The translations under genes were made by a program, and so were the position numbers. The notes under the pieces are model-generated. The model made no database searches. It was not told the DNA's origin and was given only the letters and a program-made list of their open reading frames with translations. Shown one piece after another: positions 183 through 22,110 of a DNA stretch of 34,073 nt (its first letter is position 1; each line of letters begins with the position of its first letter). The stretch is from Lachnospiraceae bacterium A4 (lineage in GTDB: Bacteria > Bacillota > Clostridia > Lachnospirales > Lachnospiraceae), in assembly GCA_000403215.2 (NCBI GenBank), contig KE159546.1:1-34073 (forward strand), read 5' to 3'.

Positions 183-238
183 ACCGTGAGGGTGGTAGGA
201 CTGTTGGGTCTGGTCGTGTGGCTACGATTATTGAATAA
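183..238 (+). pseudogene. 3' end of tuf, copy 1, with att core 183-198 (left end of element A)
   Basis: The 18 codons from 185 to the TAA at 236-238 read REGGRTVGSGRVATIIE, the conserved C-terminus of elongation factor Tu. No upstream tuf sequence is present here, because the DNA to the left is the right end of another element. The core accgtgagggtggtag at 183-198 is shared exactly with 12015-12030 and 22055-22070. Synonymous differences from copy 3 are more numerous than from copy 2. This fits copies 1 and 2 having been brought in by elements and copy 3 being the displaced native end. Confidence 0.88.
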
Positions 239-260
239 TCATTAAAAAGCTTGATTTTAT

Positions 261-292
261 GGGGTTTTCCGAGAAATCGGAAAGCCCTTTTT
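261..292 (+). terminator. Rho-independent terminator after tuf copy 1
   Basis: A GC-rich stem (tttccga pairing with tcggaaa, extended by ggg/ccc) with a GAAA-type loop is followed by a run of five T. It lies directly behind the tuf stop codon, so an inserting element delivers both a new EF-Tu tail and a terminator. Confidence 0.85.
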
Positions 293-320
293 GAAACTTT
301 GAATTTAGTAAAAGAGCGTC

Positions 321-342
321 TTTGGTTCTAATTTGGTTCTAA
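321..342. promoter_or_regulatory. Candidate integrase arm-binding repeats, left end of A
   Basis: The 11-mer TTTGGTTCTAA is repeated twice in direct tandem. The GGTTCTA word recurs with the same 11-bp spacing at the right end of A (11895-11916). The first GGTTCTA begins 141 bp from the start of the att core, the same distance as the GGTGCC repeat in element B. Confidence 0.65.
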
Positions 343-390
343 ATTTTTTGCTATAGGTTTTAAACTGGGAATAGGAGATGAAAAAGTAAA

Positions 391-1218
391 ATGAATTACT
401 ATTCTGCTTTAATTAAATCGGGAAAGATTCTTGAAGGATATTTTGAACAAAGTAAAAATATATTACATAATGGCAGTAAAGGTACAGTAAGAGAAAATAT
501 TGTCAATAAAGTTATCAGACCTTTTTTGCCGGCTTGTTATGGATTGTCAGGTGGGGAGGCATTTGATAGTGAAGGAAATACAAATAAACAGTTAGATTTG
601 GTGGTGTATGATAGCGTTTTTTCGTACATAATTCCGTATATAGATAATTACATACAATTTCCCTGTGAATCCATTTATGGAAATATAGAAATCAAGTCAT
701 TTTTGAATAAAGATGAGTTAATGAAAGCTATTGATAATATTAAGTCAATGAAGAGTCTTAAGCGTGAAGGAACGCATTCGTGGACTGTGACACCATTAGT
801 TTCTATTAAAATTAATGGGTTACCAGATAATACAGATAGAAATCCATATTTTGGTATAATTTTTGCTTATGATAGTGTAGAAGCGTTAACAGTTTTGAAT
901 TATTTGGAAAACTTAGATATACCATCAAATCTTTTGCCTAATGCTATTGTTTTATATAGTAAAAGAACTATTATTTTTCAGGCAACAGATAGTAATATTG
1001 AAGGGTTTCCCAGTAATGATTTTAACAAATATGTTATGCTTAATTGTGGTGAAGAAACATTAGCGGTTTTTATTGGTTTATTGATTAATTTTACTAGATA
1101 TTCGTTACTTTGGGTTGCTGATGTTCCTAAAGAAATTAATAAGGCGTTAGAACGCATACTGAATGACAATATACGAAATAAGAGTATAAAGGAAATTTCG
1201 GTATTAACGAATAAATAA
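391..1218 (+). CDS. DUF6602-type putative nuclease (left-slot cargo of A)
   Basis: The 275-residue protein looks like the DUF6602 family. A helical N-terminus ends in a GTVREN segment (E35), followed by QLDLVVYD (D69) and GNIEIKS (E100, K102). The spacing of E, D and E-x-K matches the PD-(D/E)xK nuclease fold, so a DNA-cutting defence effector is plausible but unproven. No signal peptide or membrane segment is seen. It stands alone, reading away from tuf and converging on the XRE repressor. Its 70-75% AT content is higher than the backbone's. The start is ATG 391, with a weak purine-rich site (ggagatgaaaaag) upstream. Confidence 0.6.
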   Translation: MNYYSALIKSGKILEGYFEQSKNILHNGSKGTVRENIVNKVIRPFLPACYGLSGGEAFDSEGNTNKQLDLVVYDSVFSYIIPYIDNYIQFPCESIYGNIEIKSFLNKDELMKAIDNIKSMKSLKREGTHSWTVTPLVSIKINGLPDNTDRNPYFGIIFAYDSVEALTVLNYLENLDIPSNLLPNAIVLYSKRTIIFQATDSNIEGFPSNDFNKYVMLNCGEETLAVFIGLLINFTRYSLLWVADVPKEINKALERILNDNIRNKSIKEISVLTNK

Positions 1219-1331
1219 ATGTTTGTGCTTTGATAATTATAGTTATTAAATCTATTATTTTGAGGGGAAAGAGAATTGATTCAGCAATGAATTAATTTCT
1301 TTCCCATACTTGATTAGAGAGATGCACAGCT

Positions 1332-1832
1332 TCAATAGTTCTCTACCGGAATATTAAATGAATTCATCAAACTGTCTATCCATATATTGTATTCGTCACT
1401 GTCAATTTTTTCAGTTTCCAATTCTTTGTTCAATTCGTTCCAACGAGATATAAGAGATGCAATCTGTGGACTTTCTATGTTAATAGATGCCACTAAGCGT
1501 CTAGTAGCAGTATTGACGGAAGTGGAACATTCTACAGGAATACCAGCTCGTATCAATTCCATGATTACCTTTAAAATATCTGAATATGTGTTAATGCTCA
1601 ATTCTTCGTTGGGTTTAATCGTATATCCAAAAAATAATTCTTCTTTAATGCCAATAATAGAACAGAATTTTTGTATTACTTCCATAGGCGGTTCGCTATA
1701 ACCGTTTTCGTAATTAGAATAAGTCGGAACAGACAGTTCCAACTTCGCAGCCATTTCTTTTTGAGACATATCAGCTCCCATACGAAAGGACTTCAAACGT
1801 TTATCTACATGTAAATAATGTGCTATTCGCAT
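1332..1832 (-). CDS. XRE-family repressor of element A
   Basis: The 166-residue protein has an N-terminal Cro/CI-type helix-turn-helix at about residues 12-65 (SQKEMAAKLELSVPTYSNYE), followed by a helical C-terminal region. It is transcribed divergently from the excisionase-integrase operon across an AT-rich intergenic region, the usual layout for an element's lysogeny-style repressor. I infer that it controls excision and mobilization. The equivalent in B (14334-14816) sits in the same place but is only distantly similar, so the two elements probably respond to different signals or operators. Confidence 0.82.
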   Translation of the reverse strand: MRIAHYLHVDKRLKSFRMGADMSQKEMAAKLELSVPTYSNYENGYSEPPMEVIQKFCSIIGIKEELFFGYTIKPNEELSINTYSDILKVIMELIRAGIPVECSTSVNTATRRLVASINIESPQIASLISRWNELNKELETEKIDSDEYNIWIDSLMNSFNIPVENY

Positions 1833-2001: not shown

Positions 2002-2196
2002 ATGAAGTCAAATTACATGATGGATGCGGAAGATGTGGCTAATGAGTTGGGAATTTCTAAAGGACATGCTTATAAGGTCATTCGTCTGCTTAATGGAGAG
2101 TTGGAGAAATCTGGCTTTATTATTGTGGCAGGGAAAGTTCCCAGAGCATTTTGGGAAAAGAAGTTCTACGGTTATGAAACAGTACAGACAGCATAA
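2002..2196 (+). CDS. Excisionase-like HTH protein
   Basis: This 64-residue protein is nearly all one winged or MerR-like helix-turn-helix (AEDVANELGISKGHAYKVIR). Size, position directly before the integrase (13-bp gap) and resemblance to B's copy at 15062-15256 indicate a recombination directionality factor. Such factors bend DNA at the element ends and favour excision. ATG 2002 is preceded by a strong AAGGAGGG site 4 bp upstream. A second ATG at 2017 is possible. Confidence 0.75.
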   Translation: MKSNYMMDAEDVANELGISKGHAYKVIRLLNGELEKSGFIIVAGKVPRAFWEKKFYGYETVQTA

Positions 2197-2209: not shown

Positions 2210-3295
2210 ATGCCAGCATATAAGGATGAAAAAAGGAATACTTGGCTAAGCCTGTTCTACTATGAGGATTGGCAGGGCAACAAGAAGAAAAAGCAGAAAC
2301 GTGGGTTTAAAACAAAGAAAGAAGCGTTGGAGTGGGAAAATAATTTCAAATTATCCGCTAATGCCAATATGGATATGGCTTTGGGAGCATTTGTTGAGAT
2401 TTATTTTCGTGATAAAGAGGGCGAGTTGAAGGAGCGTTCAATCAAGAATAAAAGGTACATGATAGAAGCGCATATTCTTCCTTACTTTGAAAATAAGAAA
2501 ATGAATGAGATTACTCCGTCAGATATTATCCAGTGGCAGAACGCAATGAGGGAAAAAGGGTATGCGCAGACCTATCTTCGCATGGTGCAAAATCAGATTA
2601 CTGCCTTATTCACTCATGCAAGCAGTATTTACAATTTGGCGAATAATCCATGTAAGAGAGTGAAAAAGATGGGAAAGCCAGATGCGGATAAGCTGGACTT
2701 TTGGACAAAAGAGGAATACGACAAGTTTATCAGTACGATTGAGGTTGAAAGCCGCTATTACGTGATTTTTGAAATTTTGTTCTGGACGGGAATTAGGGAA
2801 GGCGAACTACTTGCCTTAACAAAATCGGACGTAGATTTTCAGAACAACCGTATGAGTATCACAAAGACCTATTATCGGACGGAAAGGCGAGATGTGATTA
2901 CTGCCCCTAAAACGGAACAATCTGTGCGAGTAATCGAATTGCCGGAGTTCTTAACACAGGAAATAAAAGAATATGTAGATAAGTTATATGAATTGCCGGA
3001 TGATGAGCGCATTTTCCCTATTGTTGCAGAAGCATTACAGCATAAATTGAAGCGGCAAGCGGAAAAGGCAGGAGTGAAAAAGATACGTGTCCATGATATT
3101 CGTCACAGCAGTGTAGCGTATCTTATCAATCAGGGGATACAACCGTTGATTATCAAAGAACGGTTAGGGCATAAGGATATTAGAATCACTTTAAATACTT
3201 ATGGGCATTTGTATCCTAACCAACAAAGGCAAGTGGCGGATATGTTGAACCAACAAAAAATAAGCCCTAACAGCGGCAACTGTCAGGACTTATGA
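2210..3295 (+). CDS. Tyrosine integrase of element A
   Basis: This 361-residue site-specific recombinase has three parts: an N-terminal arm-binding domain (about residues 1-50, a lysine-rich KKKKQKRGF hairpin), a SAM-like core-binding domain (about 55-165), and a catalytic domain. Catalytic signatures are TGIREGELLAL (first Arg), HDIRHSS (His and Arg), ERLGHKDI (His) and the TYGHLYP tyrosine. I chose ATG 2210 because AAGGAGGG precedes it, although the frame is open to 2024 and overlaps xis there. It is similar to B's integrase along its length, with more divergence in the arm-binding domain. That fits the different arm repeats of A and B. Predicted role: integration and excision at the tuf 3' end. 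Confidence 0.93.
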   Translation: MPAYKDEKRNTWLSLFYYEDWQGNKKKKQKRGFKTKKEALEWENNFKLSANANMDMALGAFVEIYFRDKEGELKERSIKNKRYMIEAHILPYFENKKMNEITPSDIIQWQNAMREKGYAQTYLRMVQNQITALFTHASSIYNLANNPCKRVKKMGKPDADKLDFWTKEEYDKFISTIEVESRYYVIFEILFWTGIREGELLALTKSDVDFQNNRMSITKTYYRTERRDVITAPKTEQSVRVIELPEFLTQEIKEYVDKLYELPDDERIFPIVAEALQHKLKRQAEKAGVKKIRVHDIRHSSVAYLINQGIQPLIIKERLGHKDIRITLNTYGHLYPNQQRQVADMLNQQKISPNSGNCQDL

Positions 3296-3348: not shown

Positions 3349-3386
3349 CTTCTAACGACAATAATTTTTTAGCAATGGAGGGTATG

Positions 3387-4367
3387 ATGGAAGAAACAAA
3401 AACAGGGTTACAGATGATAAAAATGTCGGAAATACAGTCGCAGGAAGTTTCTTGGCTGTGGTATCCGTTTATCCCTTATGGCAAGCTGACAATCATTCAA
3501 GGCGATCCGGGTGATGGAAAAACAACGCTTGTGCTGAATATAGCGGCGAAACTATCAAAGGGAGAGGGGCTAGACAGTGAGATGAAATTATCTGAGCCAA
3601 TAAATGTAATTTATCAGAGTGCGGAAGATGGTTTGGCAGATACAGTTAAGCCGAGATTGGAGCTGGCAGGGGCAGATTGTGAGAGGATATTGGTTATTGA
3701 TGAAAAGGAAAAATCTCTATCTATGGTTGATGAACGATTGGAAAGGGCGATTGCACAGACGAAAGCAAGAATGTTGATTTTAGATCCGATACAGGCATAT
3801 CTTGGCGGCGGTATGGATATGAACAGAGCAAATGAAGCAAGGGATATGACAAAGAAATTGGGAGCATTAGCAGAGAAATATCAGTGTGCAATCGTTCTTA
3901 TCGGTCACATGAATAAAGCAGCAGGAAATAAGGCTGCGTATCGGGGCATGGGTTCGATTGATTTCCTTGCAGTAGCAAGAAGCGTATTATTGGTTGGCAG
4001 GGTTGAAGGAGAACCCAATATTAGAGCAGTAGTGCAAATAAAAAATAATCTTGCAGCATTCGGACACCCGAAAGCATTTGCATTGTCAGAGGACGGTTTT
4101 CAATGGCTTGGGGATTATGAGATTACGGCTGATGAAGTCTTAGGCGGCATTACCCCAAAAGCAAATAAAATGGAACAGGCGAAGCGATTGCTTAGGGAAC
4201 TGGCTTTGACTTCTGATACAGTTCAGAGCAATGAGATTTTTGATATGGCGGACGAGCAGGGAATTTCAAAGAGGACATTGGAAAATGCAAAAAGGGAGTT
4301 TGGCATTCGGGCGAAGAAAATAAACAATTCTTGGTATTGGGAATTGGACAAGGTAAAGCCGGAATAA
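3387..4367 (+). CDS. RepA-like AAA ATPase (replicative helicase type)
   Basis: The protein resembles the RepA/AAA_25 hexameric helicase family of mobilizable plasmids. Walker A is GDPGDGKTT at about residues 39-47, Walker B lies around MLILDPIQAYLGGG, and a sensor segment reads IVLIGHMNKAAG. The C-terminal 70 residues look like a winged-helix domain (SNEIFDMADEQGISKRTLENA). I place the start at ATG 3387 (MEETKT). GGAGGG lies only a few bases upstream, and B has the same start with the same spacing, while the upstream ATG 3375 contains this site. Predicted role: replication of the excised circular element, with the inverted repeat just downstream as a possible origin. Confidence 0.8.
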   Translation: MEETKTGLQMIKMSEIQSQEVSWLWYPFIPYGKLTIIQGDPGDGKTTLVLNIAAKLSKGEGLDSEMKLSEPINVIYQSAEDGLADTVKPRLELAGADCERILVIDEKEKSLSMVDERLERAIAQTKARMLILDPIQAYLGGGMDMNRANEARDMTKKLGALAEKYQCAIVLIGHMNKAAGNKAAYRGMGSIDFLAVARSVLLVGRVEGEPNIRAVVQIKNNLAAFGHPKAFALSEDGFQWLGDYEITADEVLGGITPKANKMEQAKRLLRELALTSDTVQSNEIFDMADEQGISKRTLENAKREFGIRAKKINNSWYWELDKVKPE

Positions 4368-4376
4368 AAGGAAGAA

Positions 4377-4455: not shown

Positions 4456-4536
4456 GACTTGATTGAGATGTGCTTTCGCATAGATGAAATGAGTAGATGA
4501 ACAGGCTAAACTATTTGCCAGCGTAAGCGTGGCAAT

Positions 4537-4640
4537 GCCCCCGGCAGGGCGCAAAGGCACTTTTGATAGAGCGTAGCCTGTCGAAAGTGCTTTTGCGTTA
4601 CTTTCGCAGAAAGTAACAAAGGCTGTGCCTGTCGGCACAA
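4537..4640 (+). other. oriT of element A
   Basis: This non-coding block lies directly upstream of the relaxase gene. A hairpin with arms gcaaaggcactttt (4551-4564) and gaaagtgcttttgc (4582-4595) is followed by the dyad gttactttcgcagaaagtaac, then acaaaggct and another small hairpin (tgtgcc-tgtc-ggcaca). The 88 bp from 4537 to 4624 are identical to 17612-17699 in element B, although neighbouring DNA has diverged. Stem-loops preceding a MobV gene are the usual oriT layout. The nick site probably lies by the second dyad but cannot be fixed by eye. Confidence 0.78.
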
Positions 4641-4677
4641 AATATGACAAGTAAAGAAGATAGGAAGGGTGAGATTA

Positions 4678-6048
4678 GTGGAGAGGACAATTAGCGGCAT
4701 GATGGGAAAAGGTTCTGTCAGTCATAATACGAGAACTTTCAGTGCAAAGAATGTGGATAAGGAGAGAACCAAATATAATGTGGAGTTCTGTCATTTGGAT
4801 ATTAAAAAGGTATATCACGAATTATTTGATGATGCGTTGGAGCGTTACAATGCAAAGCAGAAACGGAGTGACCGGAAAATTGACAATTATTATGAGAAGA
4901 TAAGGCAGAGCAAGCAGGAGAAGTTATTTCATGAAGTTATTCTTCAGATTGGAAATAAAGATGATACGAATGCGAAAAGCGAAGAAGGGCAGCTTGCAAA
5001 GGAAATATTGATAGAGTTTATGGAAGATTTTCAGAAAAGAAATCCGAATCTATATGTGTTTTCGGCGCATCTGCATATGGATGAGGAAACGCCACACGTT
5101 CATATTGATTTTGTTCCTTTTATCCGTAACAGCAAGCGTGGACTTGATACGAGAGTATCACTGAAAGGCGCACTGGCAGAGCAGGGATTTAAAGGCGGCA
5201 CAAGAAGCGCAACGGAGTGGAATCAATGGATGGAGTCAGAAAAACAGGAACTCTCAAAAGTGGCGGAAAGGTACGGTGTGCGGTGGAAACAGTTAGGAAC
5301 GCATAATAAGCATTTATCTGTACTGGATTTTGAAAAGCAGGAGAGAGCAAAAGAAGTCGCAACATTGGAAAAGGCGGTATCCAGTAATAAAGCGGAATTA
5401 TCCCACATTATTTATCAGCAAGTCTTGGCTGAAAATGAAATAGAGAAGATAAAGCTGGAAAATGAAGTATTTAGGCAGGAAACAACGGAACTTTCCGCAA
5501 CAAATGATTTATTAAGGGAGCAGACGGATGGATTGATGGAGAATAGAGAAAAGCTGATGTCTGATAATAAAACATTGGAACAGCTACAGAAAAAGTTGCA
5601 GCAGGATATTGAGAAAATGGCTGATTCTAAAGTGACATTGGAACGTAACATACATGCCTATGATGAAGATGCAAAATGGCAGTTGCCGGAGCCGGCTGCT
5701 TTAATGGGCGCAAAGGCTTATCGGGAAAAGAACGCTATGCCACTTGTGGAAAGGCTGAAAGAAATTGTAAAAAGTCTTACAATAAAATGTGTCAACCTTA
5801 TGGATCAGATAAAGCAGTTAAAAGCAAAGGTCACGAAACAGGCAGAGGATATTGACTTCTATAAAAGTAAGGTACATCAGCAGTATGTAAAATTAGAACA
5901 GTTGCAGGAAAAAGCGGATGATTTTGAGCGTGTGAAACAATATGTCGGGGTAGACAAAATTGATATTATTGTGACAAATGCAAGGGAATTGGAACAAATC
6001 GCACAGATTGAAAAACAGCAGAACAGAACGTATGGAGTGGGCAGATAA
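4678..6048 (+). CDS. MobV-family relaxase (Mob_Pre)
   Basis: This 456-residue mobilization relaxase would nick oriT and pilot the strand. Motif I, VSHNTRTF, has His16 in the place of the catalytic His of pMV158 MobM. The metal-binding motif HLHMDEETPHVHIDF is at about residues 131-145. Residues about 210-400 form a long coiled coil. The frame is open to GTG 4669, but GTG 4678 has a GGAAGGG site 8 bp upstream and matches the start of B's relaxase (KRTIS against ERTIS). oriT lies directly upstream. It could act on both A and B, whose oriT blocks are identical. Confidence 0.9.
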   Translation: MERTISGMMGKGSVSHNTRTFSAKNVDKERTKYNVEFCHLDIKKVYHELFDDALERYNAKQKRSDRKIDNYYEKIRQSKQEKLFHEVILQIGNKDDTNAKSEEGQLAKEILIEFMEDFQKRNPNLYVFSAHLHMDEETPHVHIDFVPFIRNSKRGLDTRVSLKGALAEQGFKGGTRSATEWNQWMESEKQELSKVAERYGVRWKQLGTHNKHLSVLDFEKQERAKEVATLEKAVSSNKAELSHIIYQQVLAENEIEKIKLENEVFRQETTELSATNDLLREQTDGLMENREKLMSDNKTLEQLQKKLQQDIEKMADSKVTLERNIHAYDEDAKWQLPEPAALMGAKAYREKNAMPLVERLKEIVKSLTIKCVNLMDQIKQLKAKVTKQAEDIDFYKSKVHQQYVKLEQLQEKADDFERVKQYVGVDKIDIIVTNARELEQIAQIEKQQNRTYGVGR

Positions 6049-6064: not shown

Positions 6065-6436
6065 ATGATGGATAACGGAAATTGGGGCGGACAGTATTAT
6101 ATGGAGGATATTATAGGCTGTGAATACAACATGGATAACGGTTATGTAGAGGTTTATTATTCTGACGGTAATGTTTTGCGGTTGAAATGTGAAGAAATAG
6201 AAGCCAGTCTGCGCACTACAGAACAATCGCTTGCGAAGCTGCATAAGTTGTTGGATAGCAAGCCGATTGAATATGTTGCAATGGCGTTGTCGGGAGAACT
6301 GCAAGTCTATTGTGACATAGAGGCAGATATGGTAAAAGGTATGTTTGGCACGATTGTTCAAGGCTATTTGAAACAAGGATACAATAAGGCTATGGCAGAA
6401 GCGTTAGCGAGAGAATTTTTCAGATATGAAAGTTGA
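6065..6436 (+). CDS. DUF6061-like small protein
   Basis: The 123-residue protein begins near GCEYNMDNGYVEVYYSDG, which resembles the DUF6061 family found in Lachnospiraceae mobile elements. I chose ATG 6065 because the longer open frame to 5978 lies inside the relaxase gene, and a purine-rich site (agaaagga) precedes 6065. It ends inside the start region of the next gene. Element B lacks this gene, so it is not essential to the backbone. Function unknown. Confidence 0.6.
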   Translation: MMDNGNWGGQYYMEDIIGCEYNMDNGYVEVYYSDGNVLRLKCEEIEASLRTTEQSLAKLHKLLDSKPIEYVAMALSGELQVYCDIEADMVKGMFGTIVQGYLKQGYNKAMAEALAREFFRYES

Positions 6437-6443
6437 GGGGAAC

Positions 6444-6758
6444 ATGACGGATACAGAGAAAAAAGTAATGGTGCGTTTATGCACGAAGATTTTGACAGAA
6501 ACAGAACTTTACGAAATGGATATGGAAGTAAGGAATTTAGTGGATTGGATATGTGTTTCGGAACAGATGAAAGAAAATAACAATAGAATCCGCAGTCTGA
6601 CAGGGGAATATAAGCAGATAGAGCCGGAATGTCGGGAGGGCATCAGAGAAAAGCTAGAACGCATGAAAAAACTGTGTGAGGAGCGTAATAGTTTGTACGA
6701 AAAGCAGAATGAGTTAAGGGGGCAGAGGGAGAAATTGGAGAAGAGTTTTGTGAGATAA
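6444..6758 (+). CDS. Small coiled-coil mobilization accessory protein
   Basis: The 104-residue, mostly helical, charged protein (REKLERMKKLCEERNSLYEK) is closely similar to 19102-19416 in B, which lies at the same place after the relaxase gene. ATG 6444 follows TTGAGGGGAAC, a good ribosome site. It overlaps no other gene once this start is used. It could be a MobC-like helper or a relaxase partner. I do not recognise a characterised family. Confidence 0.6.
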   Translation: MTDTEKKVMVRLCTKILTETELYEMDMEVRNLVDWICVSEQMKENNNRIRSLTGEYKQIEPECREGIREKLERMKKLCEERNSLYEKQNELRGQREKLEKSFVR

Positions 6759-7284: not shown

Positions 7285-8319
7285 ATGTTTTATACAATTG
7301 AATTGTTTGCTGGTGCTGGTGGACTTGCGTTAGGAATTGAGAAAGCAGGATTTGAAACGCTTGGACTAATTGAATTTGATAAAGATGCGTCAGATACATT
7401 GAGAAGAAACAGACCTAATTGGAATGTCATTCATGATGATATTGCAAATATTTCTTGTTTGGATTTGGAAAAATATTTTCATATACAGAAAGGAGAACTG
7501 GATTTACTTTCTGGAGGGGCACCTTGTCAGGCGTTTTCATATGCAGGGAAAAGGTTGGGATTGGAAGATGCCAGAGGGACGCTTTTTTACCATTATGCGT
7601 TATTTTTACAGAAGTTGCAGCCGAAGATGTTTCTGTTTGAAAATGTTAGAGGATTGCTTACACATAATCACGGAAATACATATAAGACGATGTTAAGTAT
7701 TTTTGCAAAGGCAGGATATACAATTGATAAAAAAGTATTGAATGCGTGGGATTACGGAGTCCCTCAAAAGAGAGAGCGTTTGATTACAGTCGGAATAAGA
7801 AATGATTTAGTAGACAAAACAGAATATGTATTCCCCAAACCTCATGACTACAAACCTGTATTGAAAGATGTTTTGTTAGATTGTCCAGATAGTCCATATA
7901 TTCCATATGGAGAAAAAAAGAAAAAGATATTTGAAATGGTTCCGGCAGGTGGATACTGGCGAGACATTGATCCAAATGTGGCAAAAGAGTATATGAAAAG
8001 CTGTTGGGAAATGGAGGGCGGACGTACCGGAATATTACGGAGAATGAGTTTAGATGAGCCGTCATTAACTGTATTAACATCGCCGTCTCAAAAGCAGACG
8101 GAGCGTTGCCACCCATTGGAGGCAAGACCTTTTACGATAAGGGAAAATGCAAGGTGTCAGACTTTTCCAGATGAATGGGAATTTTGTGGAAATGTTTCAT
8201 CTCAGTATAAACAGGTGGGAAACGCAGTGCCAGTTAATTTGGCATGGGATATTGCAACAGAAATACATCGTTCACTTGAGATATTGGCAAAAAAAGAGAA
8301 AATCAGGGAGGCAATGTAA
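7285..8319 (+). CDS. DNA (cytosine-5) methyltransferase
   Basis: The 344-residue enzyme transfers methyl groups from SAM to cytosine C5. Visible motifs are I FAGAGG (residues 8-13), IV GGAPCQAFS (catalytic Cys at about 81), VI ENVRG (about 119), VIII QKRERL (about 160) and X GNAVPVNLA near the C-terminus. It precedes an Eco47II-family endonuclease with a 5-bp gap, so the two form one type II system. If the endonuclease assignment is right, the target would be GGNCC. The target recognition region lies at about residues 180-290. Size is normal and no motif is missing. Confidence 0.95.
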   Translation: MFYTIELFAGAGGLALGIEKAGFETLGLIEFDKDASDTLRRNRPNWNVIHDDIANISCLDLEKYFHIQKGELDLLSGGAPCQAFSYAGKRLGLEDARGTLFYHYALFLQKLQPKMFLFENVRGLLTHNHGNTYKTMLSIFAKAGYTIDKKVLNAWDYGVPQKRERLITVGIRNDLVDKTEYVFPKPHDYKPVLKDVLLDCPDSPYIPYGEKKKKIFEMVPAGGYWRDIDPNVAKEYMKSCWEMEGGRTGILRRMSLDEPSLTVLTSPSQKQTERCHPLEARPFTIRENARCQTFPDEWEFCGNVSSQYKQVGNAVPVNLAWDIATEIHRSLEILAKKEKIREAM

Positions 8320-8324
8320 TCGTA

Positions 8325-9224
8325 ATGAGTTGGTCGTTGGATTTTATATCGGAAGAAAATTTTATTAAGCATGTAGGAGCAACGATAGAAAAGTATGGTG
8401 AGAAACTTGAATCCTATGACGTGAAGCGTTTTAACAAAAATATCATTGACCCTATCAAACTGATTTTCGATAAAACGGTATATCAGACTTCGTGGGAAGA
8501 AATGGTAGGTAATGAAATATTTCGTCAGCGTGACAAGTCAAATAATAATGACATAGGTTACTTTCATCAAAGGATATTTCAGTATATAGATAAATGCAGA
8601 GTGCCGGAGAATGGGAAAGAAGGTGGCTGGGATGTAATTTATCAAAACGAGGACGGAATCGTGTTGCCGGATGGAGATGTGGTTCATACAGTATATGTTG
8701 AAATGAAAAATAAGCATAATACAATGAATTCAGCTTCGGCAGGTAAAACATATATTAAGATGCAAAATCAGTTATTAAGTGATGACGATTGCGCTTGTTT
8801 TTTGGTAGAAGCAATTGCCCAGAAGTCACAAAATATAAAGTGGGAAACTACGGTAGACGGAAAGCGTGTTTCCCATAAAAGAATAAGACGAGTAAGTTTG
8901 GATCAGTTTTATGCAATTACAACTGGGGAAGATAATGCTTTTTATAATATGTGTATGGTTCTTCCAAATGTAATTGAAAAGGTGGTAAAGCAGGATGGAA
9001 CGGTTCAAATTCCGCATGATACTGTTTTGCAGGAATTGAAAAATATTGCGGATATGTCAGGTAGAGAGACAGAAGATATGGCAATGGCTATTGCTGTATA
9101 TATGTTAGGGTTTAATTCTTATTTGGGGTTTTCGAGTTTGGTAGGAAATGATAAGAACAGGACTGCGAATGAGAATTATTTGAAACGGATTTATGCCTAT
9201 GCGAAAGGTCTAAGTGAAAAATGA
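8325..9224 (+). CDS. Eco47II-family type II restriction endonuclease
   Basis: The 299-residue protein resembles the Eco47II family (RE_Eco47II), whose type member cuts GGNCC. Residues D103 (GWDVIY), E126 and K128 (VYVEMKNKHN) fit a PD-(D/E)xK catalytic site. Also visible is NEIFRQRDKSNNNDIGYFHQ at about residues 63-82. It starts 5 bp after the methylase stop and is probably co-transcribed with it. Specificity is inferred from family resemblance only. Confidence 0.85.
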   Translation: MSWSLDFISEENFIKHVGATIEKYGEKLESYDVKRFNKNIIDPIKLIFDKTVYQTSWEEMVGNEIFRQRDKSNNNDIGYFHQRIFQYIDKCRVPENGKEGGWDVIYQNEDGIVLPDGDVVHTVYVEMKNKHNTMNSASAGKTYIKMQNQLLSDDDCACFLVEAIAQKSQNIKWETTVDGKRVSHKRIRRVSLDQFYAITTGEDNAFYNMCMVLPNVIEKVVKQDGTVQIPHDTVLQELKNIADMSGRETEDMAMAIAVYMLGFNSYLGFSSLVGNDKNRTANENYLKRIYAYAKGLSEK

Positions 9225-14333: not shown

Positions 14334-14816
14334 TTACCAACCTTTTATTTGCTTTATCTGTTCTGCCCGTTCTTGGTCTTTGTGATACTGTAATTTGAAT
14401 TGTATTGTTTCTACCACTTCTTTTCTTGCTTCGTCATCTAGCTGATAAAATAAAGTCAACAGATTATCCACATCGGGCATACTGTTTTTCCCAAACAGAT
14501 ACATAAGCGGATATAGGGAATTTTTCAGATATACCTTTACCCGGTTTCCGTCAAGAGCGCCATTCAGTCCATCGGGGAGCGTGGGATATATTTCTTCTTC
14601 GGTAATAGCGCCGGAGAACGGACTGGCGGCGCAAATCTCATTCACATTAATTTCTAATTCGTTTGCCAACCGCAAGGCAAAGTCAAATCGGATATTGGAA
14701 TCCTTTTGAATAATGGAATACAGTGTTGTAGCACTAATTCCAGTAGCCTTTGCAATCTGACGGACATTTGTGTTCTTACTGTCAAGTATTTCTTTCAGTT
14801 TCTTTCCATCGCCCAT
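14334..14816 (-). CDS. XRE-family repressor of element B
   Basis: The 160-residue protein has an N-terminal helix-turn-helix (NVRQIAKATGISATTLYSII, about residues 16-35) and a helical C-terminal half. It is divergent from the xis-int operon. Two perfect TACGAAATTCGTA palindromes in the intergenic region flank the operon promoter and are its probable operators. It is not obviously homologous to A's repressor outside the HTH. Confidence 0.85.
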   Translation of the reverse strand: MGDGKKLKEILDSKNTNVRQIAKATGISATTLYSIIQKDSNIRFDFALRLANELEINVNEICAASPFSGAITEEEIYPTLPDGLNGALDGNRVKVYLKNSLYPLMYLFGKNSMPDVDNLLTLFYQLDDEARKEVVETIQFKLQYHKDQERAEQIKQIKGW

Positions 14817-15274: not shown

Positions 15275-16351
15275 ATGGCTTATAAGGAGAAAGACACAAA
15301 AAAGTGGTCGGCGCAATGGTTTGAAACAACGGCAAAAGGAGAGAAGAAAAAGCGAAGAAAGAGGGGATTTGAAACAAAAAGAGAAGCGTTAGAGTATGAG
15401 CGGCAAAAGAAATTGAGCAGCAGCCGAAGCATGGATATGAAGTTGAGTGAATTTATGGAGGTCTATTTTGAGGATAAGCAGAATGAATTGAAAGACCGCA
15501 CCATGAAGAATAAACGGTATATGATGGAGCAACACATTATTCCCTACTTTGGCGAACAAATGTTGAGTGAGATTACCGCTTCACAAATCATACAGTGGCA
15601 GAACGAAATGCAGACAAAGGGATTTTCGGAAAGCTATTTAAGAATGATACAAAATCAGTTGACCTGTATATTTACTCATGCGTCACGCATTTATGATTTG
15701 CACACAAATCCATGTAAGAAAGTGAAGCGCATGGGAAATTCCGATTCAAGAAGTTTGGACTTTTGGACAACAGAGGAATATCAGAGATTTATTCAGACGA
15801 TAGAGCCGAGAACACGATACTATTTAATCTTTGAAATCCTCTTTTGGACGGGCTGTAGGATTGGCGAATTATTGGCTTTGACAAAGGGCGATATTAGTTT
15901 TGAAAATAACCAAATCAGCATAATCAAAACTTATTATCGTACTGGCAGACAGGACGTTATTACAGAACCGAAAACAAAGCAGTCTGTAAGAACCGTTGAA
16001 ATCCCGGAGTTTTTGAAAAAGGAAATTAAGGATTTTGTTGACGGTCACTATGGTATGCCGGACGATGAAAGACTTTTCCCAATCGTGCAGGAAGCGGTTC
16101 AGCATAAAATGAAACGCCAAATTGCGAAAGCCGGAGTGAAGAATATCCGGGTACATGACCTTAGACATTCTCATGTAGCTTACTTAATCAATAAGGGCAT
16201 AGAACCACTTTTGATAAAAGAGAGAGTAGGGCACAAGGATATTCGCATTACGTTGAATACCTACGGACATTTATATCCTAATCAGCAACGGAGAGTGGCA
16301 GACTTACTTGACAATGAAAAAGGAAATAGCCCCGACAGGGGCAACTGTTAG
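15275..16351 (+). CDS. Tyrosine integrase of element B
   Basis: The 358-residue recombinase has the same domain order as A's: arm-binding N-terminus, core-binding domain and catalytic domain with TGCRIGELLAL, HDLRHSH, ERVGHKDI and TYGHLYP. Much of the catalytic half is shared with A. The first 50 residues are clearly more divergent, in line with the GGTGCC rather than GGTTCTA arm repeats at B's ends. AAAGGAG precedes ATG 15275. Predicted target is the same 16-bp tuf core. Confidence 0.93.
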   Translation: MAYKEKDTKKWSAQWFETTAKGEKKKRRKRGFETKREALEYERQKKLSSSRSMDMKLSEFMEVYFEDKQNELKDRTMKNKRYMMEQHIIPYFGEQMLSEITASQIIQWQNEMQTKGFSESYLRMIQNQLTCIFTHASRIYDLHTNPCKKVKRMGNSDSRSLDFWTTEEYQRFIQTIEPRTRYYLIFEILFWTGCRIGELLALTKGDISFENNQISIIKTYYRTGRQDVITEPKTKQSVRTVEIPEFLKKEIKDFVDGHYGMPDDERLFPIVQEAVQHKMKRQIAKAGVKNIRVHDLRHSHVAYLINKGIEPLLIKERVGHKDIRITLNTYGHLYPNQQRRVADLLDNEKGNSPDRGNC

Positions 16352-16412: not shown

Positions 16413-16450
16413 CCTCCAGTGACAACGATTTTTCAGAAATGGAGGGCATT

Positions 16451-17428
16451 ATGGAAGAAACAAAAACAGAATTACAGTTGATTAAATTGTCAGAAATACA
16501 GTCGCAGGAAGTTTCTTGGCTGTGGTTTCCCTTTATCCCTTATGGCAAACTGACAATCGTACAAGGCGATCCGGGGGACGGAAAGACAACATTTATACTC
16601 AATATAGCGGCGAAGCTGTCTAAGGGAGAGAGTTTAGACGGAGGAATGAATTTTACAGAGCCTTTGAATGTAATCTATCAGAGTGCGGAGGACGGTCTTG
16701 CCGATACGGTAAAGCCCCGATTGGAACAGGCAAAGGCAGACTGTGAGAAAATCTCGGTCATTGATGAACAGATAAAATCCCTTTCCATGATAGATGAACG
16801 CTTGGAAGAAGCTGTTATAAAAACAGGTGCAAAGCTGTCGATTTTAGACCCGATACAAGCCTATTTGGGCGGTGGCATGGATATGAACCGGGCAAACGAA
16901 GCAAGGGACATGACAAAGAAGTTGGCGGCATTGGCAGAGAAATACCAGTGTGCGATTGTCCTTGTCGGGCATATGAACAAAGCGGCAGGAAATAAGGCGG
17001 CATACCGGGGAATGGGTTCGATTGATTTTTTTGCAGTCGCTAGAAGCGTTCTCTTAGTCGGCAGGGTTGAGGGAGAAGAAAATATAAGGGCTGTGGTGCA
17101 GATTAAAAACAACCTTGCGGCGTTCGGACACCCGAAAGCATTTGCACTGTCGGAGGAAGGTTTTCAATGGCTAGGGGATTATGAGATTACGGCTGATGAA
17201 GTGTTAGGCGGCATTGCCCCGAAAGCAAATAAAATGGAACAGGCGAAGCGGTTACTCCGGGAACTGGCAGAAACAAACAACGCCATGCAGAGCAATGAGA
17301 TTTTTAATCTAGCGGACGAACAGGGCATATCAAAGCGGACACTGGAAAATGCGAAGAAGGAGTTGGGTGTCCGGGCAAAGAGGATAAACAATACATGGTA
17401 TTGGGAACTGGATAAAATCAGACAGTGA
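16451..17428 (+). CDS. RepA-like AAA ATPase of element B
   Basis: The protein is closely similar to 3387-4367 over its whole length. Walker A is GDPGDGKTT at about residues 39-47, the Walker B-like segment LSILDPIQAYLGGG, sensor IVLVGHMNKAAG, and a C-terminal winged-helix-like segment. The start at ATG 16451 (MEETKT) has GGAGGG 4 bp upstream and matches A. Expected to drive replication of the circular form, with the 17448-17540 repeat as a possible origin. Confidence 0.8.
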   Translation: MEETKTELQLIKLSEIQSQEVSWLWFPFIPYGKLTIVQGDPGDGKTTFILNIAAKLSKGESLDGGMNFTEPLNVIYQSAEDGLADTVKPRLEQAKADCEKISVIDEQIKSLSMIDERLEEAVIKTGAKLSILDPIQAYLGGGMDMNRANEARDMTKKLAALAEKYQCAIVLVGHMNKAAGNKAAYRGMGSIDFFAVARSVLLVGRVEGEENIRAVVQIKNNLAAFGHPKAFALSEEGFQWLGDYEITADEVLGGIAPKANKMEQAKRLLRELAETNNAMQSNEIFNLADEQGISKRTLENAKKELGVRAKRINNTWYWELDKIRQ

Positions 17429-17540: not shown

Positions 17541-17611
17541 GTGTTGGGAGAAAGCCGGGAAGCGGCAGTATCAAGGCGGCGAAAAGCCGCCCACCGTCCG
17601 CAGGACGGAAA

Positions 17612-17720
17612 GCCCCCGGCAGGGCGCAAAGGCACTTTTGATAGAGCGTAGCCTGTCGAAAGTGCTTTTGCGTTACTTTCGCAGAAAGTAACAAAGGCTA
17701 TGCGCCGTATCCGGCGCTCA
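17612..17720 (+). other. oriT of element B
   Basis: Positions 17612-17699 are identical to 4537-4624 in A over 88 bp: hairpin, then the gttactttcgcagaaagtaac dyad, then acaaaggct. A different downstream hairpin follows (gcgcc-gtatcc-ggcgc). A small hairpin, ccgtcc-gca-ggacgg, lies just before it at 17594-17608. The conservation against a diverged background marks the functional oriT. Confidence 0.78.
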
Positions 17721-17749: not shown

Positions 17750-19080
17750 TTGAAACGGACTATCAGCGTTATGACAGGGAAAGGCTCTGTCAACCATAAC
17801 AGCAGAAAATTTCACGCAAAGAACACTGACCCGGAGCGGAGCTGTCTGAATGTGGAATACTGCAATGAAAATATCAAAGATGTATACCACGAATTATTTG
17901 ATGAAGCACTTGCCCGGTACAATGAGAAGCAGACCAGAAGTGACCGCCGGATTGATGATTATTATGAAAAAATCTGTTCCGGCAAACAGGAGAAGCCATT
18001 CCATGAGATTATTTTGCAGATAGGCAATAAGAACGATATGGGAGCAAAGACGGAGGACGGACAGCTTGCGGCAAAAATACTTGATGAATATATGCAGGAC
18101 TTCCAACGGCGCAATCCTACACTAAGAGTATTTTCGGTACATCTCCATATGGACGAAGCTACGCCACATCTGCATATAGATTTCATACCCTATACGACTG
18201 GAAGCAAGCGGGGACTTGAAACAAGGGTATCATTAAAAAAGGCACTGGCAGAACTTGGCTTCAAAGGCGGCACAAGGAGCGAAACAGAGCGCAATCAGTG
18301 GGTAGCGGCAGAGAAAGAACAGCTTGCGGAGATTATGTTACAGTATGGTATTTTTTGGATTTTGAGAAGCAGGAACGGCAGAAAGAAGTTGCAGAACTGG
18401 AACAGACAATCTCCGGCAGTAAAGAGGAATTATCCGATATTCTTCATCAGCAGATAGCGGCAGGACAGGAAACGGAACAGATACGCAAGGAGGGCGAAGC
18501 GATCCGGCAGGAAGTATCGGAACTTACCGCTACAAATCTTCTTTTGAAAGAACAGACGGAAATATTGGCAGAGGATAAAGAAAAGCTGTTATCCGAAAAT
18601 GAAAAATTGGAGAAACAGCAGAAAAAGTTACAGCAGGACATTAACAAAATGGTACAGTCAAAGGAAGTTATGGAGCGCAATATACACGCCTATGATGAAG
18701 ATGTGAAATGGCAGTTGGCAGAGCCGGGGGCATTGATGAGTGCAAAGGCATACCGGGATAAAAAGGCTTTACCGCTTGTGGAGAAATTGAAAGAGGTCGT
18801 TAAAAATCTGACTGTCAAATGCGTACAGCTTACGGAGCAGGACAAGAAGCTGACCGCCAAAGTGGACGGGCAACAAAAACAGATTAGCCACTTGACGGAT
18901 AAGGTCATGGAGCAGAGCGACACCATAGACCGATTGCAGGAAAAAGCGTCTGATTTGGGACGTTTGGAGCGTCATTTAGGCAGGGAACAGGTACAGTCGA
19001 TTGTGGAACGGTCAAAGGCATTAGAGCAGGCAGAGCGGGCGAATAAACGCCCGAAACGTGCCTTTGAAATGAACCGATAG
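17750..19080 (+). pseudogene. MobV relaxase gene of element B, frameshifted
   Basis: The first frame, from TTG 17750, carries an intact N-terminal relaxase domain: motif I VNHNSRKF and HLHMDEATPHLHIDF. After about residue 203 (LQYGIFW) it leaves the frame used by A and stops at 18457 after an unrelated tail. The coiled-coil C-terminal half continues in another frame, from about 18347 (LDFEKQERQKEV) to 19080. Alignment with A shows a net loss of about 40 bp near 18345, which removes the segment equal to RWKQLGTHNKHLSV and shifts the frame. The 235-residue product keeps the catalytic His residues, so partial activity is possible. Confidence 0.85.
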
Positions 19081-19629: not shown

Positions 19630-20400
19630 ATGCAAGATTATGAAAAGTTTAAGCAAATTTATGTTGAAATAGATGAGCTAATAAAAAAACAAGTTACATC
19701 AGAAGATGCTGAATTTATTACATGGCATACAAAGGCAGAGAGATTTATTAGAAAGAAATACGGAGAATATTCAGAATTCAAGGCGTTTTCTGATATAAGT
19801 TATTCTTTAATGGTATATACGTTTGAAGATACTCATTCTGATTATGTAGAGGCTTGTCGGAATGGATTAGAGGAAACAAAAGCCATTTTTAAAGTTTATT
19901 TAGATGAAATGGAAGAAGAAACAGAAACAGTAAATAAACCTACATTAATGAATGAATGTAGGTTGGAATATTCCAAAGTGTTTATTGTTCATGGACATGA
20001 TGGGGAACTTAAAGAATCTATTGCACGTTTGATTGAAAGGCAAGGTATAAAAGCGATTATATTAAATGAGCAAACAAATAGAGGCGCAACAATTATAGAG
20101 AAGTTTGAAAGAAATAGTGAAGTTGCTGCTGCTATTTGCTTGTTTACAAAAGATGATATGGGTAAGGCAATGAATGATACTGATTATCAAGCAAGAGCGA
20201 GACAAAATGTCGTATTTGAAGCAGGGTATTTTATGGGCAAATTAGGGAGAAAACATGTGATAATGATTGCAGATGAAGATATTGAAATACCATCTGATTT
20301 GCAGGGAGTTGTTTATACAAATAGTTCATATTGGCAAGTAGAAGTTTTAAAAGAATTGAAAGAAATTGGTTTTTGTATTGATATGAATAAAGCGTTTTAG
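19630..20400 (+). CDS. TIR-like protein (predicted NAD-consuming defence effector)
   Basis: This 256-residue protein has an N-terminal helical region (about 1-105) and a C-terminal domain of the TIR-like nucleotide-binding type (CAP12/Pycsar TIR family). Signatures are SKVFIVHGHDGELKESIARL (about 115-134), NRGATIIEKFE (about 150-160), ARARQNVVFEAGYFMGKLGR (about 188-207) and IPSDLQGVVY (220-229). Relatives degrade NAD+ when triggered by phage infection. No cyclase gene lies next to it. The start is ATG 19630 with GGAGGG upstream. It is AT-rich compared with the backbone. Confidence 0.82.
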   Translation: MQDYEKFKQIYVEIDELIKKQVTSEDAEFITWHTKAERFIRKKYGEYSEFKAFSDISYSLMVYTFEDTHSDYVEACRNGLEETKAIFKVYLDEMEEETETVNKPTLMNECRLEYSKVFIVHGHDGELKESIARLIERQGIKAIILNEQTNRGATIIEKFERNSEVAAAICLFTKDDMGKAMNDTDYQARARQNVVFEAGYFMGKLGRKHVIMIADEDIEIPSDLQGVVYTNSSYWQVEVLKELKEIGFCIDMNKAF

Positions 20401-20470
20401 AAATTTTAATAATAAGTCAAAAACTTTTGCGAAATGTAGTAAGCGAGCAGTAATAGGGGGCAATTGGTAA

Positions 20471-21610
20471 TTGTATAGTAAATCAGAAATATTATCTGGT
20501 ACAAAGTTTGGTGCATTAACAGTTATAAAACGAGCAGATGATTATATTAGTCCAAAAGGGCAACATGAAAAGAGATATTTATGTCGGTGTGAGTGTGGGA
20601 GAGATTATATTACTCGTGGAAGTTGGCTAAAAAGCGGTAAATCTAGTTGCTGTAATCAATGTAGTAAGATAAAAATTAGTTTGAAAAGAACAAGAGATTT
20701 ATCAAATTGTCGATTTGGTCGTTGGACTGTGATAGAAAAGGCGGAAACAGAGAAGTCAGGGAGTTATTGGAAATGTCGTTGCGATTGCGGAAATGAAAAA
20801 ATAATAAGAGGAACTTCATTAACCTCTGGAAATTCGGTGTCTTGTGGCTGTTATGCACTGGAAAAGTTAAGAGAAGAGCGAATGCTTAATTTAGTAGGTG
20901 AAAAATTTGATAGATTGACTGTCTTATGTCAAGTAGAGGATTTTGTTAGTCCTATAAATGGAAAAAGACGTAGTCGGTGGAAATGTCAATGTGATTGTGG
21001 AAATATTATATATGTGAATGGAACAGACTTAACATCAGGAAATACACATTCTTGCGGTTGTTATAAACTAGAAAGGACCAGTGAAACTCATTTTCAGGAT
21101 ATATCTGGTCAAAGATTTGGTATGTTGCTTGTGTTAAGGCGAGTGGAGGATTATATAACATCTGAAAATGGGAGAGCAAGACCACAATTCTTATGCCAGT
21201 GTGATTGTGGAAATCAAAAGATAATTCAGAAAGATAGTTTAATGAATGGAACAATTTCTTGTGGTTGTTTAAATTCACGTGGAGAGCGAGAAATTGCAGA
21301 ATTTTTACGAAAACATAATATAAGGTATGAGATTCAATATGGTTTTCCTGATTTGGTTGGCGGTTTACCTTTGAAATTTGATTTTGCATTATTTAATGAA
21401 AATGAGGAATTAGTAGCGTTAGTGGAATACCAAGGAGAACAGCATTTTGAGGCTGTTGAATTTTTTGGTGGTGAAAAAAAGTTTGAGCGACAGAGAGTGA
21501 ATGATGAGATGAAACGCTCTTATTGCAAAAATAAGGGGATACGGTTGATTGAAATACCTTATTGGGAAAGTGTGGATAAATATTTAAAATCCTTTATTAA
21601 AAATAAATGA
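20471..21610 (+). CDS. Four-zinc-ribbon protein with a C-terminal PD-(D/E)xK-like endonuclease domain
   Basis: The 379-residue protein has four repeats of about 65-70 residues. Each has a G-x-x-F/W-G/D-x-L/W-T/L-V strand, a CxCxCG knuckle (positions about 38, 102, 172, 242) and a closing Cys cluster (SCGC in repeats 2-4). The C-terminal 110 residues hold REIAEFLRKHNIRYE, LKFDFALF (D304) and LVEYQGEQHF (E319, Q321), like Vsr/DUF559-type nucleases and some phage homing endonucleases. Multiple ribbons would read a long DNA site. It starts at TTG 20471 with AGGGGG upstream. It may be a homing endonuclease or an anti-phage nuclease. Confidence 0.65.
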   Translation: MYSKSEILSGTKFGALTVIKRADDYISPKGQHEKRYLCRCECGRDYITRGSWLKSGKSSCCNQCSKIKISLKRTRDLSNCRFGRWTVIEKAETEKSGSYWKCRCDCGNEKIIRGTSLTSGNSVSCGCYALEKLREERMLNLVGEKFDRLTVLCQVEDFVSPINGKRRSRWKCQCDCGNIIYVNGTDLTSGNTHSCGCYKLERTSETHFQDISGQRFGMLLVLRRVEDYITSENGRARPQFLCQCDCGNQKIIQKDSLMNGTISCGCLNSRGEREIAEFLRKHNIRYEIQYGFPDLVGGLPLKFDFALFNENEELVALVEYQGEQHFEAVEFFGGEKKFERQRVNDEMKRSYCKNKGIRLIEIPYWESVDKYLKSFIKNK

Positions 21611-21885
21611 AAGAAATAAATGAACTTAAAATTAAATAGACTATTTTTGATTATTTAGATATGAATTTTGTTCTAACATTATGTTTTTCAAATGGGGTGT
21701 TGAGTTAGGAAGTGTTGATATATATTAATAGAAGCATAATAACGGCAAAAATTAGCAAGCTATAATAAATGATGTAATTGAGGTAAAAATAGGCGTGTAT
21801 TTGTATAAGACATAAATAAGTGCAGAATAGTAAAGAACACGTTGAAAAAACGATAACAAATGTTTTTCCTATAATGATGTATCAA

Positions 21886-21905
21886 ACATGGTGCTAGCAC
21901 CATGT
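21886..21905. repeat. 20-bp perfect palindrome, copy 3
   Basis: It is identical to 14-33 and 6827-6846. Here it is at the right edge of B's right cargo slot, about 275 bp after the endonuclease gene. Confidence 0.9.
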
Positions 21906-21934
21906 AATAAGAGCAGATAAGGAGAAAAGTATTT

Positions 21935-21956
21935 TGGTGCCGAAACGGTGCCAAGA
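21935..21956. promoter_or_regulatory. Candidate integrase arm-binding repeats, right end of B
   Basis: tggtgccgaaa and cggtgccaaga have 11-bp spacing. They are the counterpart of 12155-12176 at B's left end. The last GGTGCC begins 108 bp before the core. Confidence 0.65.
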
Positions 21957-22054
21957 AATCATGCAAATAAAAATACGCTACACAAAAACAACGATTTTAC
22001 GCTGTTTTCCGCAATAAAAAGTATAGAAAATACCACAAAAAACGCTATTCAAAT

Positions 22055-22110
22055 ACCGTGAGGGTGGTAGAACAGTTGGTTCTGGTAGGGTTGCTACTAT
22101 CATTGAGTAA
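22055..22110 (+). pseudogene. 3' end of tuf, copy 3, with att core 22055-22070 (right boundary of B)
   Basis: Codons 22057-22110 again give REGGRTVGSGRVATIIE and stop. After the core the codons differ from those of copies 1 and 2 (agg-gtt-gct-act-atc against cgt-gtg-gct-acg-att), and the following terminator is also different. I infer that this is the original chromosomal tail, pushed downstream by the insertions. The DNA beyond 22166 is not recognisably core chromosome, so this is not certain. Confidence 0.85.

What the first reader, a model, noticed from the sequence alone, without database searches (positions are those of the whole stretch)
183..22110. Tandem stack of mobilizable elements in the 3' end of tuf (EF-Tu)
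Three copies of the last 18 codons of tuf occur at 185, 12017 and 22057. All encode the same peptide, all begin with the same 16-bp core and all are followed by a terminator. The two intervals between them are complete integrase-bearing elements in the same orientation. I infer that the elements use the tuf 3' end as attB and carry their own synonymous tail plus terminator so that EF-Tu stays intact. An essential, highly expressed translation gene is an unusual target compared with the common tRNA and ribosomal-protein sites.
Basis: partly seen in the sequence, partly recalled or inferred. Interest (0 to 1): 0.85.

Follow-up and report, generated by a model that had tools for sequence, protein, structure and literature searches.

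The report
Mobilizable elements stacked in EF-Tu gene
A family of small mobile DNA elements, some carrying anti-phage genes, inserts at the very end of the gene for the essential translation factor EF-Tu in gut Lachnospiraceae, supplies a replacement gene end, and can pile up there in a row.

Summary
Three detached copies of the tuf 3' end (17 codons, stop, terminator) at 185, 12017 and 22057 bound two integrative and mobilizable elements (E1, E2). The genome's one intact tuf is the last gene of another contig, which ends 44 bp past the stop; its last 95 bp equal the 12017 copy. Of 77 loci found by integrase similarity alone, 70 hold a tuf tail on the same strand, 55 joined to intact tuf; the 7 misses are 6 short contigs and L024. 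A second, convergent integrase clade uses the same site. Arm-type repeats at fixed spacing and an oriT-like hairpin beside the relaxase gene support real elements. Window cargo has many matches to anti-phage defence models. Corrections: the left-most element is not shown joined to tuf; bases 1-184 are the right end of another E2-like element. The genome has six tail copies, counting tuf's own. Across relatives the 16-bp core shrinks to about CGTGARGG. Tails are only weakly linked to the element they sit in and look mosaic, which I cannot fully explain.

The parts
1..184 (+). Right end of a further E2-type element (GGTGCC arm pair at -121/-110 from the core); the window starts at the contig start
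   Evidence: 198 bp identical to 21873-22070; arm pair at the same spacing as E2's right end
185..238 (+). Detached tuf tail 'B' (17 codons + stop); left boundary of E1; core CGTGAGGG
242..300 (+). Region of the terminator stem-loop behind tail B
   Evidence: z -3.8
321..341 (+). E1 left arm-type repeat pair TTTGGTTCTA, 11-bp period
391..1218 (+). DUF6602 / NucC-like PD-DExK protein (cargo)
1332..1832 (-). HTH regulator of E1
2002..2196 (+). Small ORF before the integrase, excisionase-like by position only
   Evidence: family not tested
2210..3295 (+). E1 tyrosine integrase (Arm-DNA-bind_4, SAM_3, Phage_integrase)
3375..4367 (+). AAA_25 RepA-like ATPase
4534..4628 (+). Candidate oriT: 95-nt hairpin-rich sequence just before the relaxase gene
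   Evidence: 98% identical to 17609-17703; beside a relaxase match in 42 of 44 matches; DNA fold z -4.5
4669..6048 (+). Mob_Pre (MOBV-type) relaxase
6426..6758 (+). Small conserved ORF behind the relaxase (mobC-like by position only)
   Evidence: D2; no Pfam match above its cut-off
7285..9224 (+). Type II R-M: C5 methylase + Eco47II-type endonuclease (cargo)
9251..11860 (+). PHP + AAA protein; PADLOC matches to Ppl (4.8e-28) and PDC-M49A (9.4e-18) (cargo)
11896..11914 (+). E1 right arm-type repeat pair TGGTTCTA at -121/-110
12017..12070 (+). Detached tuf tail 'A' = E1/E2 boundary; identical to the 3' end of the intact tuf on contig C3
12072..12132 (+). Region of the terminator behind tail A
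   Evidence: z -4.6
12155..12172 (+). E2 left arm-type repeat pair CGGTGCC
12392..13678 (+). AbiLi-like AAA_21 ATPase (cargo)
14334..14816 (-). HTH regulator of E2
15275..16351 (+). E2 tyrosine integrase
16439..17428 (+). AAA_25 RepA-like ATPase of E2
17609..17703 (+). Candidate oriT of E2
17750..19080 (+). Relaxase region of E2, in two overlapping ORFs (probably inactive)
19630..20400 (+). CAP12/Pycsar-type TIR protein (PADLOC PDC-S35) (cargo)
20471..21610 (+). DUF2726 protein, no PADLOC match (cargo)
21936..21952 (+). E2 right arm-type repeat pair GGTGCC at -121/-110
22057..22110 (+). Detached tuf tail 'N' = boundary of E2 and the decayed element E3
22112..22172 (+). Region of the terminator behind tail N
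   Evidence: z -6.1
22195..22213 (+). E3 left arm pair TGCTTCTA; matching right arms lie on contig C8 at -122/-111 from the tail at C8:13135
24516..25877 (+). E3 Mob_Pre relaxase; no integrase match in 22057-34073
26366..27799 (+). E3 type I methylase HsdM (cargo); HsdS/HsdR-like genes on contig C8

Best explanation
E1 and E2 are integrative and mobilizable elements whose tyrosine integrases recombine a short core (about CGTGARGG) at the start of the last 17 codons of tuf. The element brings a copy of those codons plus stop and terminator. So integration splits tuf but rebuilds a full EF-Tu reading frame at the left junction and pushes the former tail and terminator to the right junction. Because every junction keeps the core, further elements insert at the same place, giving a head-to-tail stack. 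Excised circles would be moved by a helper conjugation system through the MOBV relaxase and the adjacent oriT-like hairpin. In this genome much of the cargo matches anti-phage defence models. Shown: anatomy, target, arm-type repeats, stack, cargo homology. Inferred: excision, transfer, restored expression, the exact strand-exchange position.
For: 70 of 77 integrase-retrieved loci hold a same-strand tuf tail, 55 of them joined to intact tuf; 28 have tails on both sides; 0 on the opposite strand. In 120 family genomes all 8 listed integrase matches of 495 bits or more lie within about 10 kb of a tuf tail, and 1 of 54 weaker ones does (places compared by eye). Tree of 115 integrases: the tuf label needs 3 changes. 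In 33 tail-to-tail intervals the best period-11 repeat of the right end lies at -121 to -127, scoring 8/8 in 28, 7/8 in 1, 6/8 in 3, 4/8 in 1 (shuffled left-end segments average 4.9). E1 and E2 each carry the same motif at both ends. Candidate oriT beside a relaxase match in 42 of 44 matches. Six tail copies in the own genome, tuf's own included. The sole tuf ends 44 bp before its contig end with a 95-bp overlap to tail A. Cargo matches.
Against: No excised circle, empty site or transfer was observed; three empty-site searches found none. tuf and the window lie on different contigs. Tail codons are only weakly linked to the 3' flank, which a single fixed crossover at the left of the tail does not predict. 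Left-end arm repeats were clear in only 21 of 33 intervals, and in two of those (L041, L042) they do not resemble the right ones; same-element ends match only slightly better than different-element ends (14.7 against 13.8 of 19). E2's relaxase is broken. L024 has 10 kb upstream and no tail.
Confidence: 0.93

Rival explanations
1. The tuf fragments are captured cargo or remnants of old tuf duplications, and the integrase has another target.
For: tuf body and window are on different contigs.
Against: 65 of 77 loci have the tail upstream on the same strand, 55 as the end of an intact tuf; fixed spacing of right arm repeats to the tail; weaker integrase relatives are rarely near tuf.
Confidence: 0.03
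2. The window's order (E2 end, E1, E2, E3) reflects an assembly or population mixture, for example a circular E1+E2 composite or an amplified E1-E2 unit, rather than a chromosome with two E2 copies. (This concerns the order only and is compatible with the best explanation.)
For: The contig starts inside an exact copy of E2's right end (198 bp) and C3 shares exactly 95 bp with tail A, as at the ends of repeated assembly nodes.
Against: Other genomes also show a second integrase or a second tail in a row, so stacking itself is not an artefact.
Confidence: 0.35
3. Tail mosaicism arises from RecA-type recombination or gene conversion among repeated tails, not from the integrase.
For: 174 of 190 site pairs show all four combinations (recurrent synonymous change can also do this); flanks at both ends stay element-specific.
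Against: 54-60 bp is short for homologous recombination (recalled); tails within one locus are not strongly homogenized (6.9 against 9.2 differences of 54).
Confidence: 0.5
4. The elements are satellite prophages rather than mobilizable elements.
For: Integrase plus small regulator and defence-like cargo also fits phage satellites (recalled).
Against: Relaxase and oriT-like hairpin; no phage structural or packaging family in the Pfam scans of 30 window proteins.
Confidence: 0.02

Closest known systems
Integrative and mobilizable elements of streptococci and other Firmicutes (PMC5357655, PMC5704250; passages seen)
   Same: Site-specific tyrosine integrase, relaxase without a conjugation machine, insertion into conserved genes, tandem accretion with decayed elements.
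   Different: The target genes in the figure legend of PMC5357655 (ebfC, guaA, maff2, rpsI, rplL, rpmE, rpmG, rumA, snf2, tatD, traG) do not include tuf. Here a MOBV relaxase goes with an AAA_25 ATPase.
SGI1 at the 3' end of thdF (trmE)
   Same: 3' end of a conserved gene as target; tandem arrays reported (PMC5704250 passage).
   Different: Other target gene; a different mobilization system (recalled).
IME_Rho_tet of gut Firmicutes (PMC12904643; passages)
   Same: Gut Firmicutes IME with relaxase and cargo.
   Different: Serine recombinase, maff2 ORFs as commonest target, tetracycline resistance cargo.
dusA-targeting integrase family (PMC4482086; abstract start in the listing)
   Same: An integrase family defined by one conserved translation-related target gene.
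   Different: Site lies within the 5' end of dusA; relation of the integrases was not tested.

Membership tests
Integrative and mobilizable element (IME) | Own site-specific integrase | tested here: met
Integrative and mobilizable element (IME) | Relaxase gene | tested here: met
   E1 intact; E2 in two ORFs, so met for E2 only as a probable remnant
Integrative and mobilizable element (IME) | No own mating-pore genes | tested here: met
   No T4SS family among Pfam matches of the 20 scanned proteins of E1/E2; short ORFs were not scanned
Integrative and mobilizable element (IME) | oriT | tested here: inconclusive
   Conserved 95-nt hairpin beside mob; nicking not tested
Integrative and mobilizable element (IME) | Site-specific integration between direct repeats with the target restored | tested here: met
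   no empty site seen
Integrative and mobilizable element (IME) | Excision and mobilization in trans | not testable with these tools
   needs experiments
CIME (cis-mobilizable remnant), for E3 | att sites kept, integrase lost | tested here: inconclusive
   Left arms and tail in the window, right arms and tail at C8:13135; no integrase match in window 22057-34073; but C8 and C20 are not joined in the assembly and a relaxase gene remains

The most novel reading that the evidence does not exclude
The last 17 codons and terminator of an essential gene, tuf, form a recombining cassette shared by a community of elements and hosts. Integration and loss rewrite the synonymous sequence of the host's EF-Tu end, and strand exchange is not confined to one short core but can fall anywhere in the 54-60 bp shared segment, so tails become mosaic and only weakly linked to host and element.
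Probability: 0.25. Interest if true: 0.8.

Novelty: new variant of a known kind. Interest (0 to 1): 0.62.

Why it matters
It adds one of the most expressed essential genes to the list of integration targets and shows that its 3' end can be supplied by mobile DNA. In the genome studied, the tuf stack holds matches to several anti-phage systems. The integrase family has a short target conserved across many genera, possibly useful for genetics in poorly tractable gut bacteria. It also bears on use of the tuf 3' end as a species marker. The weak link between tail and element poses a testable question about where strand exchange, or later recombination, falls.

Tried and rejected
Cargo-capture reading rejected. 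A tail fixed to its element was tested and not met: 28 pairs with a 3' flank above 93% identical differ at 0-12 of 54 tail bases, mean 6.3 (my mean of the list; 3 pairs identical), against 9.2 between loci in general. A tail fixed to its host was not met either, though the link to the adjacent 54 bases of the tuf body is moderate (r 0.34 against 0.46 for the control). (integrase codons at least 0.95 identical, tail 0.63, 5 pairs) is weak evidence, since the ungapped 3' flanks of those pairs are also only 0.63 identical on average. Tail hypervariability was dropped: tuf body codons are about as variable (means near 0.64 against 0.60). Partial tails that would reveal other crossover points: none found with my pattern. 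Empty-site searches: none (only 1, 7 and 2 genomes were held). Spread beyond the family: none of 397 other phylum genomes at E <= 1e-125. Paper searches: I saw listings only, several of them capped (25 of 47, 25 of 40, 20 of 110); no listed title or abstract start names tuf as an integration target, and 'tuf' occurs 0 times in the 14 papers. In some searches my E1 integrase query was one base out of frame; the tree is discarded and was redone. The counts rest on tail positions relative to the best integrase match, which that error moved by a few bases at most.
Full report
Observation. The three tuf tails, their common start, terminators and the two integrase-bearing intervals are as described. 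The 16-mer is found three times in the genome.

Where tuf is. The window begins at base 1 of contig C20 (51,054 bp). A search with the EF-Tu family found one match over its cut-off, C3:209413-210597, and C3 ends at 210641. C3's last 95 bp are identical to window 12017-12111, and the match starts exactly at the core. The first 198 bp of the window equal 21873-22070. The simplest order is tuf, tail A, E2-like element, tail B, E1, tail A, E2, tail N, E3. That places an unassembled second E2 copy next to tuf; a composite circle or mixed population would give the same contigs. This step is inference. A degenerate tail pattern shows six copies in the genome: tuf itself, three in the window, and C8:13135 and C8:46832.

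Target. I searched one genome per species with the aligned integrases only. 224 candidate stretches encoded a relative, the best 80 were kept, giving 77 loci; by NCBI names 65 of the 77 are Lachnospiraceae, 4 of other families, 8 without a family. Of the 77, 55 have intact tuf upstream on the same strand, 10 a detached tail upstream, 5 a tail downstream only, 7 none; 28 have tails on both sides; none has a tail on the other strand. The 7 are L036, L039, L040, L049, L054, L056 (short contigs) and L024. The distance from tail to integrase in the 65 runs from 1.05 to 8.2 kb, median 1.5 kb. In 120 family genomes, 62 integrase matches were listed at E <= 1e-70. All 8 of 495 bits or more, from 6 genomes, have a tuf tail within about 10 kb; of the 54 at 398 bits or less, one does (places compared by eye; the pattern found a tail in 84 of 120 genomes, so some could be missed). 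That one, in G024, is a convergent integrase that ends within about 100 bp of the tail. Two more convergent ones are in L137 and L086, and a fragment 45% identical to G024's stands at C8:46951-47589. So at least two integrase clades use the site; on the tree of 115 the tuf label needs 3 changes, 7 rows of unknown site left out. Of 30 loci fetched for relatives of the G024 integrase, 2 show a tuf tail in the fetched flanks, G024 itself included, so most of that wider group seems to go elsewhere. Among 398 genomes of the phylum only the own genome matched at E <= 1e-125.

Ends. The detached tails that my pattern finds all start with CGT, and the sequence to the left is element-specific. Right ends of one type are followed by tails that can differ from the ninth base on, so the shared start is about CGTGARGG. 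In 33 tail-to-tail intervals (near-duplicates such as L041/L042 included) the best period-11 repeat of the right end lies at -121 to -127 from the core, 8/8 in 28. At the left end 21 of 33 score 7/8 or 8/8 at +134 to +152; 12 do not. The motif differs between types: TGGTTCTA in E1, GGTGCC in E2, TGCTTCTA in E3, TGGCTCTA in others. Over all 33 intervals, the two ends of one element match only slightly better than ends of different elements (14.7 against 13.8 of 19). E3's left motif is in the window and its right motif lies before C8:13135, so E3 seems to have been split between contigs; C8 and C20 share a 2.1-kb stretch at 99.95% (C8:912-3011; a transposase-like ORF, family not tested). Some intervals, such as L026 and L050, carry different motifs at the two ends and may be composites.

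Contents. 32 distinct tail-to-tail intervals (35 less 3 duplicates) measure 4.6-17.7 kb; most run regulator, integrase, RepA-like ATPase, relaxase, with further ORFs near both ends. A 95-nt sequence before the relaxase gene is 98% identical between E1 and E2. It lies beside a relaxase match in 42 of 44 matches over 92 records, with 94.7-97.9% identity even where the relaxase match is 59% identical to E1's (L068, L072, L073). No shuffle of 200 folds as well. I take it as a candidate oriT. Copies of 76-98% identity also sit on own contigs C14, C21, C37 and C38, which carry weaker integrase relatives, and a short weak match on C24. This suggests that one mobilization module travels with several integration modules. 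Of the 7 E1/E2 cargo proteins scanned, 6 match PADLOC models (type II methylase and endonuclease, Ppl/PDC-M49A, AbiLi, PDC-S35 TIR, NucC-like); the DUF2726 protein does not. In E3, HsdM and RhuM-type proteins match and the ORF at 22241-22945 does not. On C8 there are matches to type I R-M, AbiLi/AbiLii, PglZ, BrxL and PDC-S02. L101 and L102, intervals behind tuf without a close integrase relative, were read from their ORFs; the two L101 proteins tested match type II R-M models, the one L102 protein tested matches none. Scans of 102 cargo proteins from the window and related elements show methylases, restriction enzymes and AAA_21 among the 25 commonest families, each in at most 7 members. The share of cargo with any defence match was not given by these lists, so I make no claim about it.

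Tails. If the element always carried its own tail, tails should follow the 3' flank. They do so only weakly. L023 and L027 share 140 of 140 flank bases and differ at 10 of 54 in the tail; 28 pairs with flanks above 93% identical differ at 0-12 of 54, mean 6.3, 3 of them identical, against 9.2 between loci in general. For 57 tuf-joined tails the distance correlation is 0.20 with the farther tuf body, 0.34 with the adjacent 54 bases of the body, and 0.09 with the adjacent 3' flank, against 0.46 and 0.62 for control segments. For 51 detached tails it is 0.11, 0.10 and 0.16, against 0.75 and 0.56. Tail halves correlate 0.15-0.18. These are weak but nearly all above zero by permutation (p 0.002-0.02; one, tail 3' half with flank, p 0.45). 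In tails from records whose titles do not say MAG, uncultured or isolate the pattern holds with fewer data: 23 tuf-joined, 0.29 and 0.19 against 0.58 and 0.70; 20 detached, 0.15 and 0.13 against 0.73 and 0.51. Of 190 site pairs 174 show all four combinations, which recombination or recurrent synonymous change can cause. The tail thus looks like a mosaic that exchanges with breakpoints near both ends and inside. RecA-type recombination among repeated tails is the conservative explanation; a strand exchange that spreads over the shared segment is the bolder one.

Known or new. IMEs at conserved genes with tandem accretion are known (PMC5704250 and PMC5357655, passages). tuf is not in the target list seen there, 'tuf' and 'elongation factor' do not occur in the main text of PMC12904643 or PMC6907783, and the listings of seven full-text searches show no title or abstract start naming it. 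Curated lists such as FirmiData were not seen. I file this as a new variant of a known kind.

Noticed in passing
window 4534-4628 and 17609-17703: 95-nt hairpin-rich sequence, 98% identical between E1 and E2 although the relaxase matches are about 67% or less identical; candidate oriT, also on own contigs that carry non-tuf integrase relatives.
   Followed up: partly
window 17750-19080: E2 relaxase region is split into two overlapping ORFs, so E2 may depend on another element's relaxase.
   Followed up: no
L100 6832 (C8:46832): This tail copy has one amino-acid change (VDTIIE), as expected for an old remnant no longer under selection.
   Followed up: no
L098 about 3600-4100 (C8): Long QTDR-coding simple repeat with a stretch of N at the end of an HsdS-like ORF; might be a phase-variable specificity gene.
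   Followed up: no
L101 and L102 (G025, G106): Intervals directly behind tuf without a close relative of the integrase; L101 carries type II R-M matches, the one L102 protein tested in PADLOC has none.
   Followed up: partly
L080, L089: Intervals in which the integrase sits at the right end next to the detached tail instead of near the left end.
   Followed up: no
window 28138-33018: UPF0236-like ORF (below its Pfam cut-off) and an IS110-family transposase inside the decayed third element.
   Followed up: no
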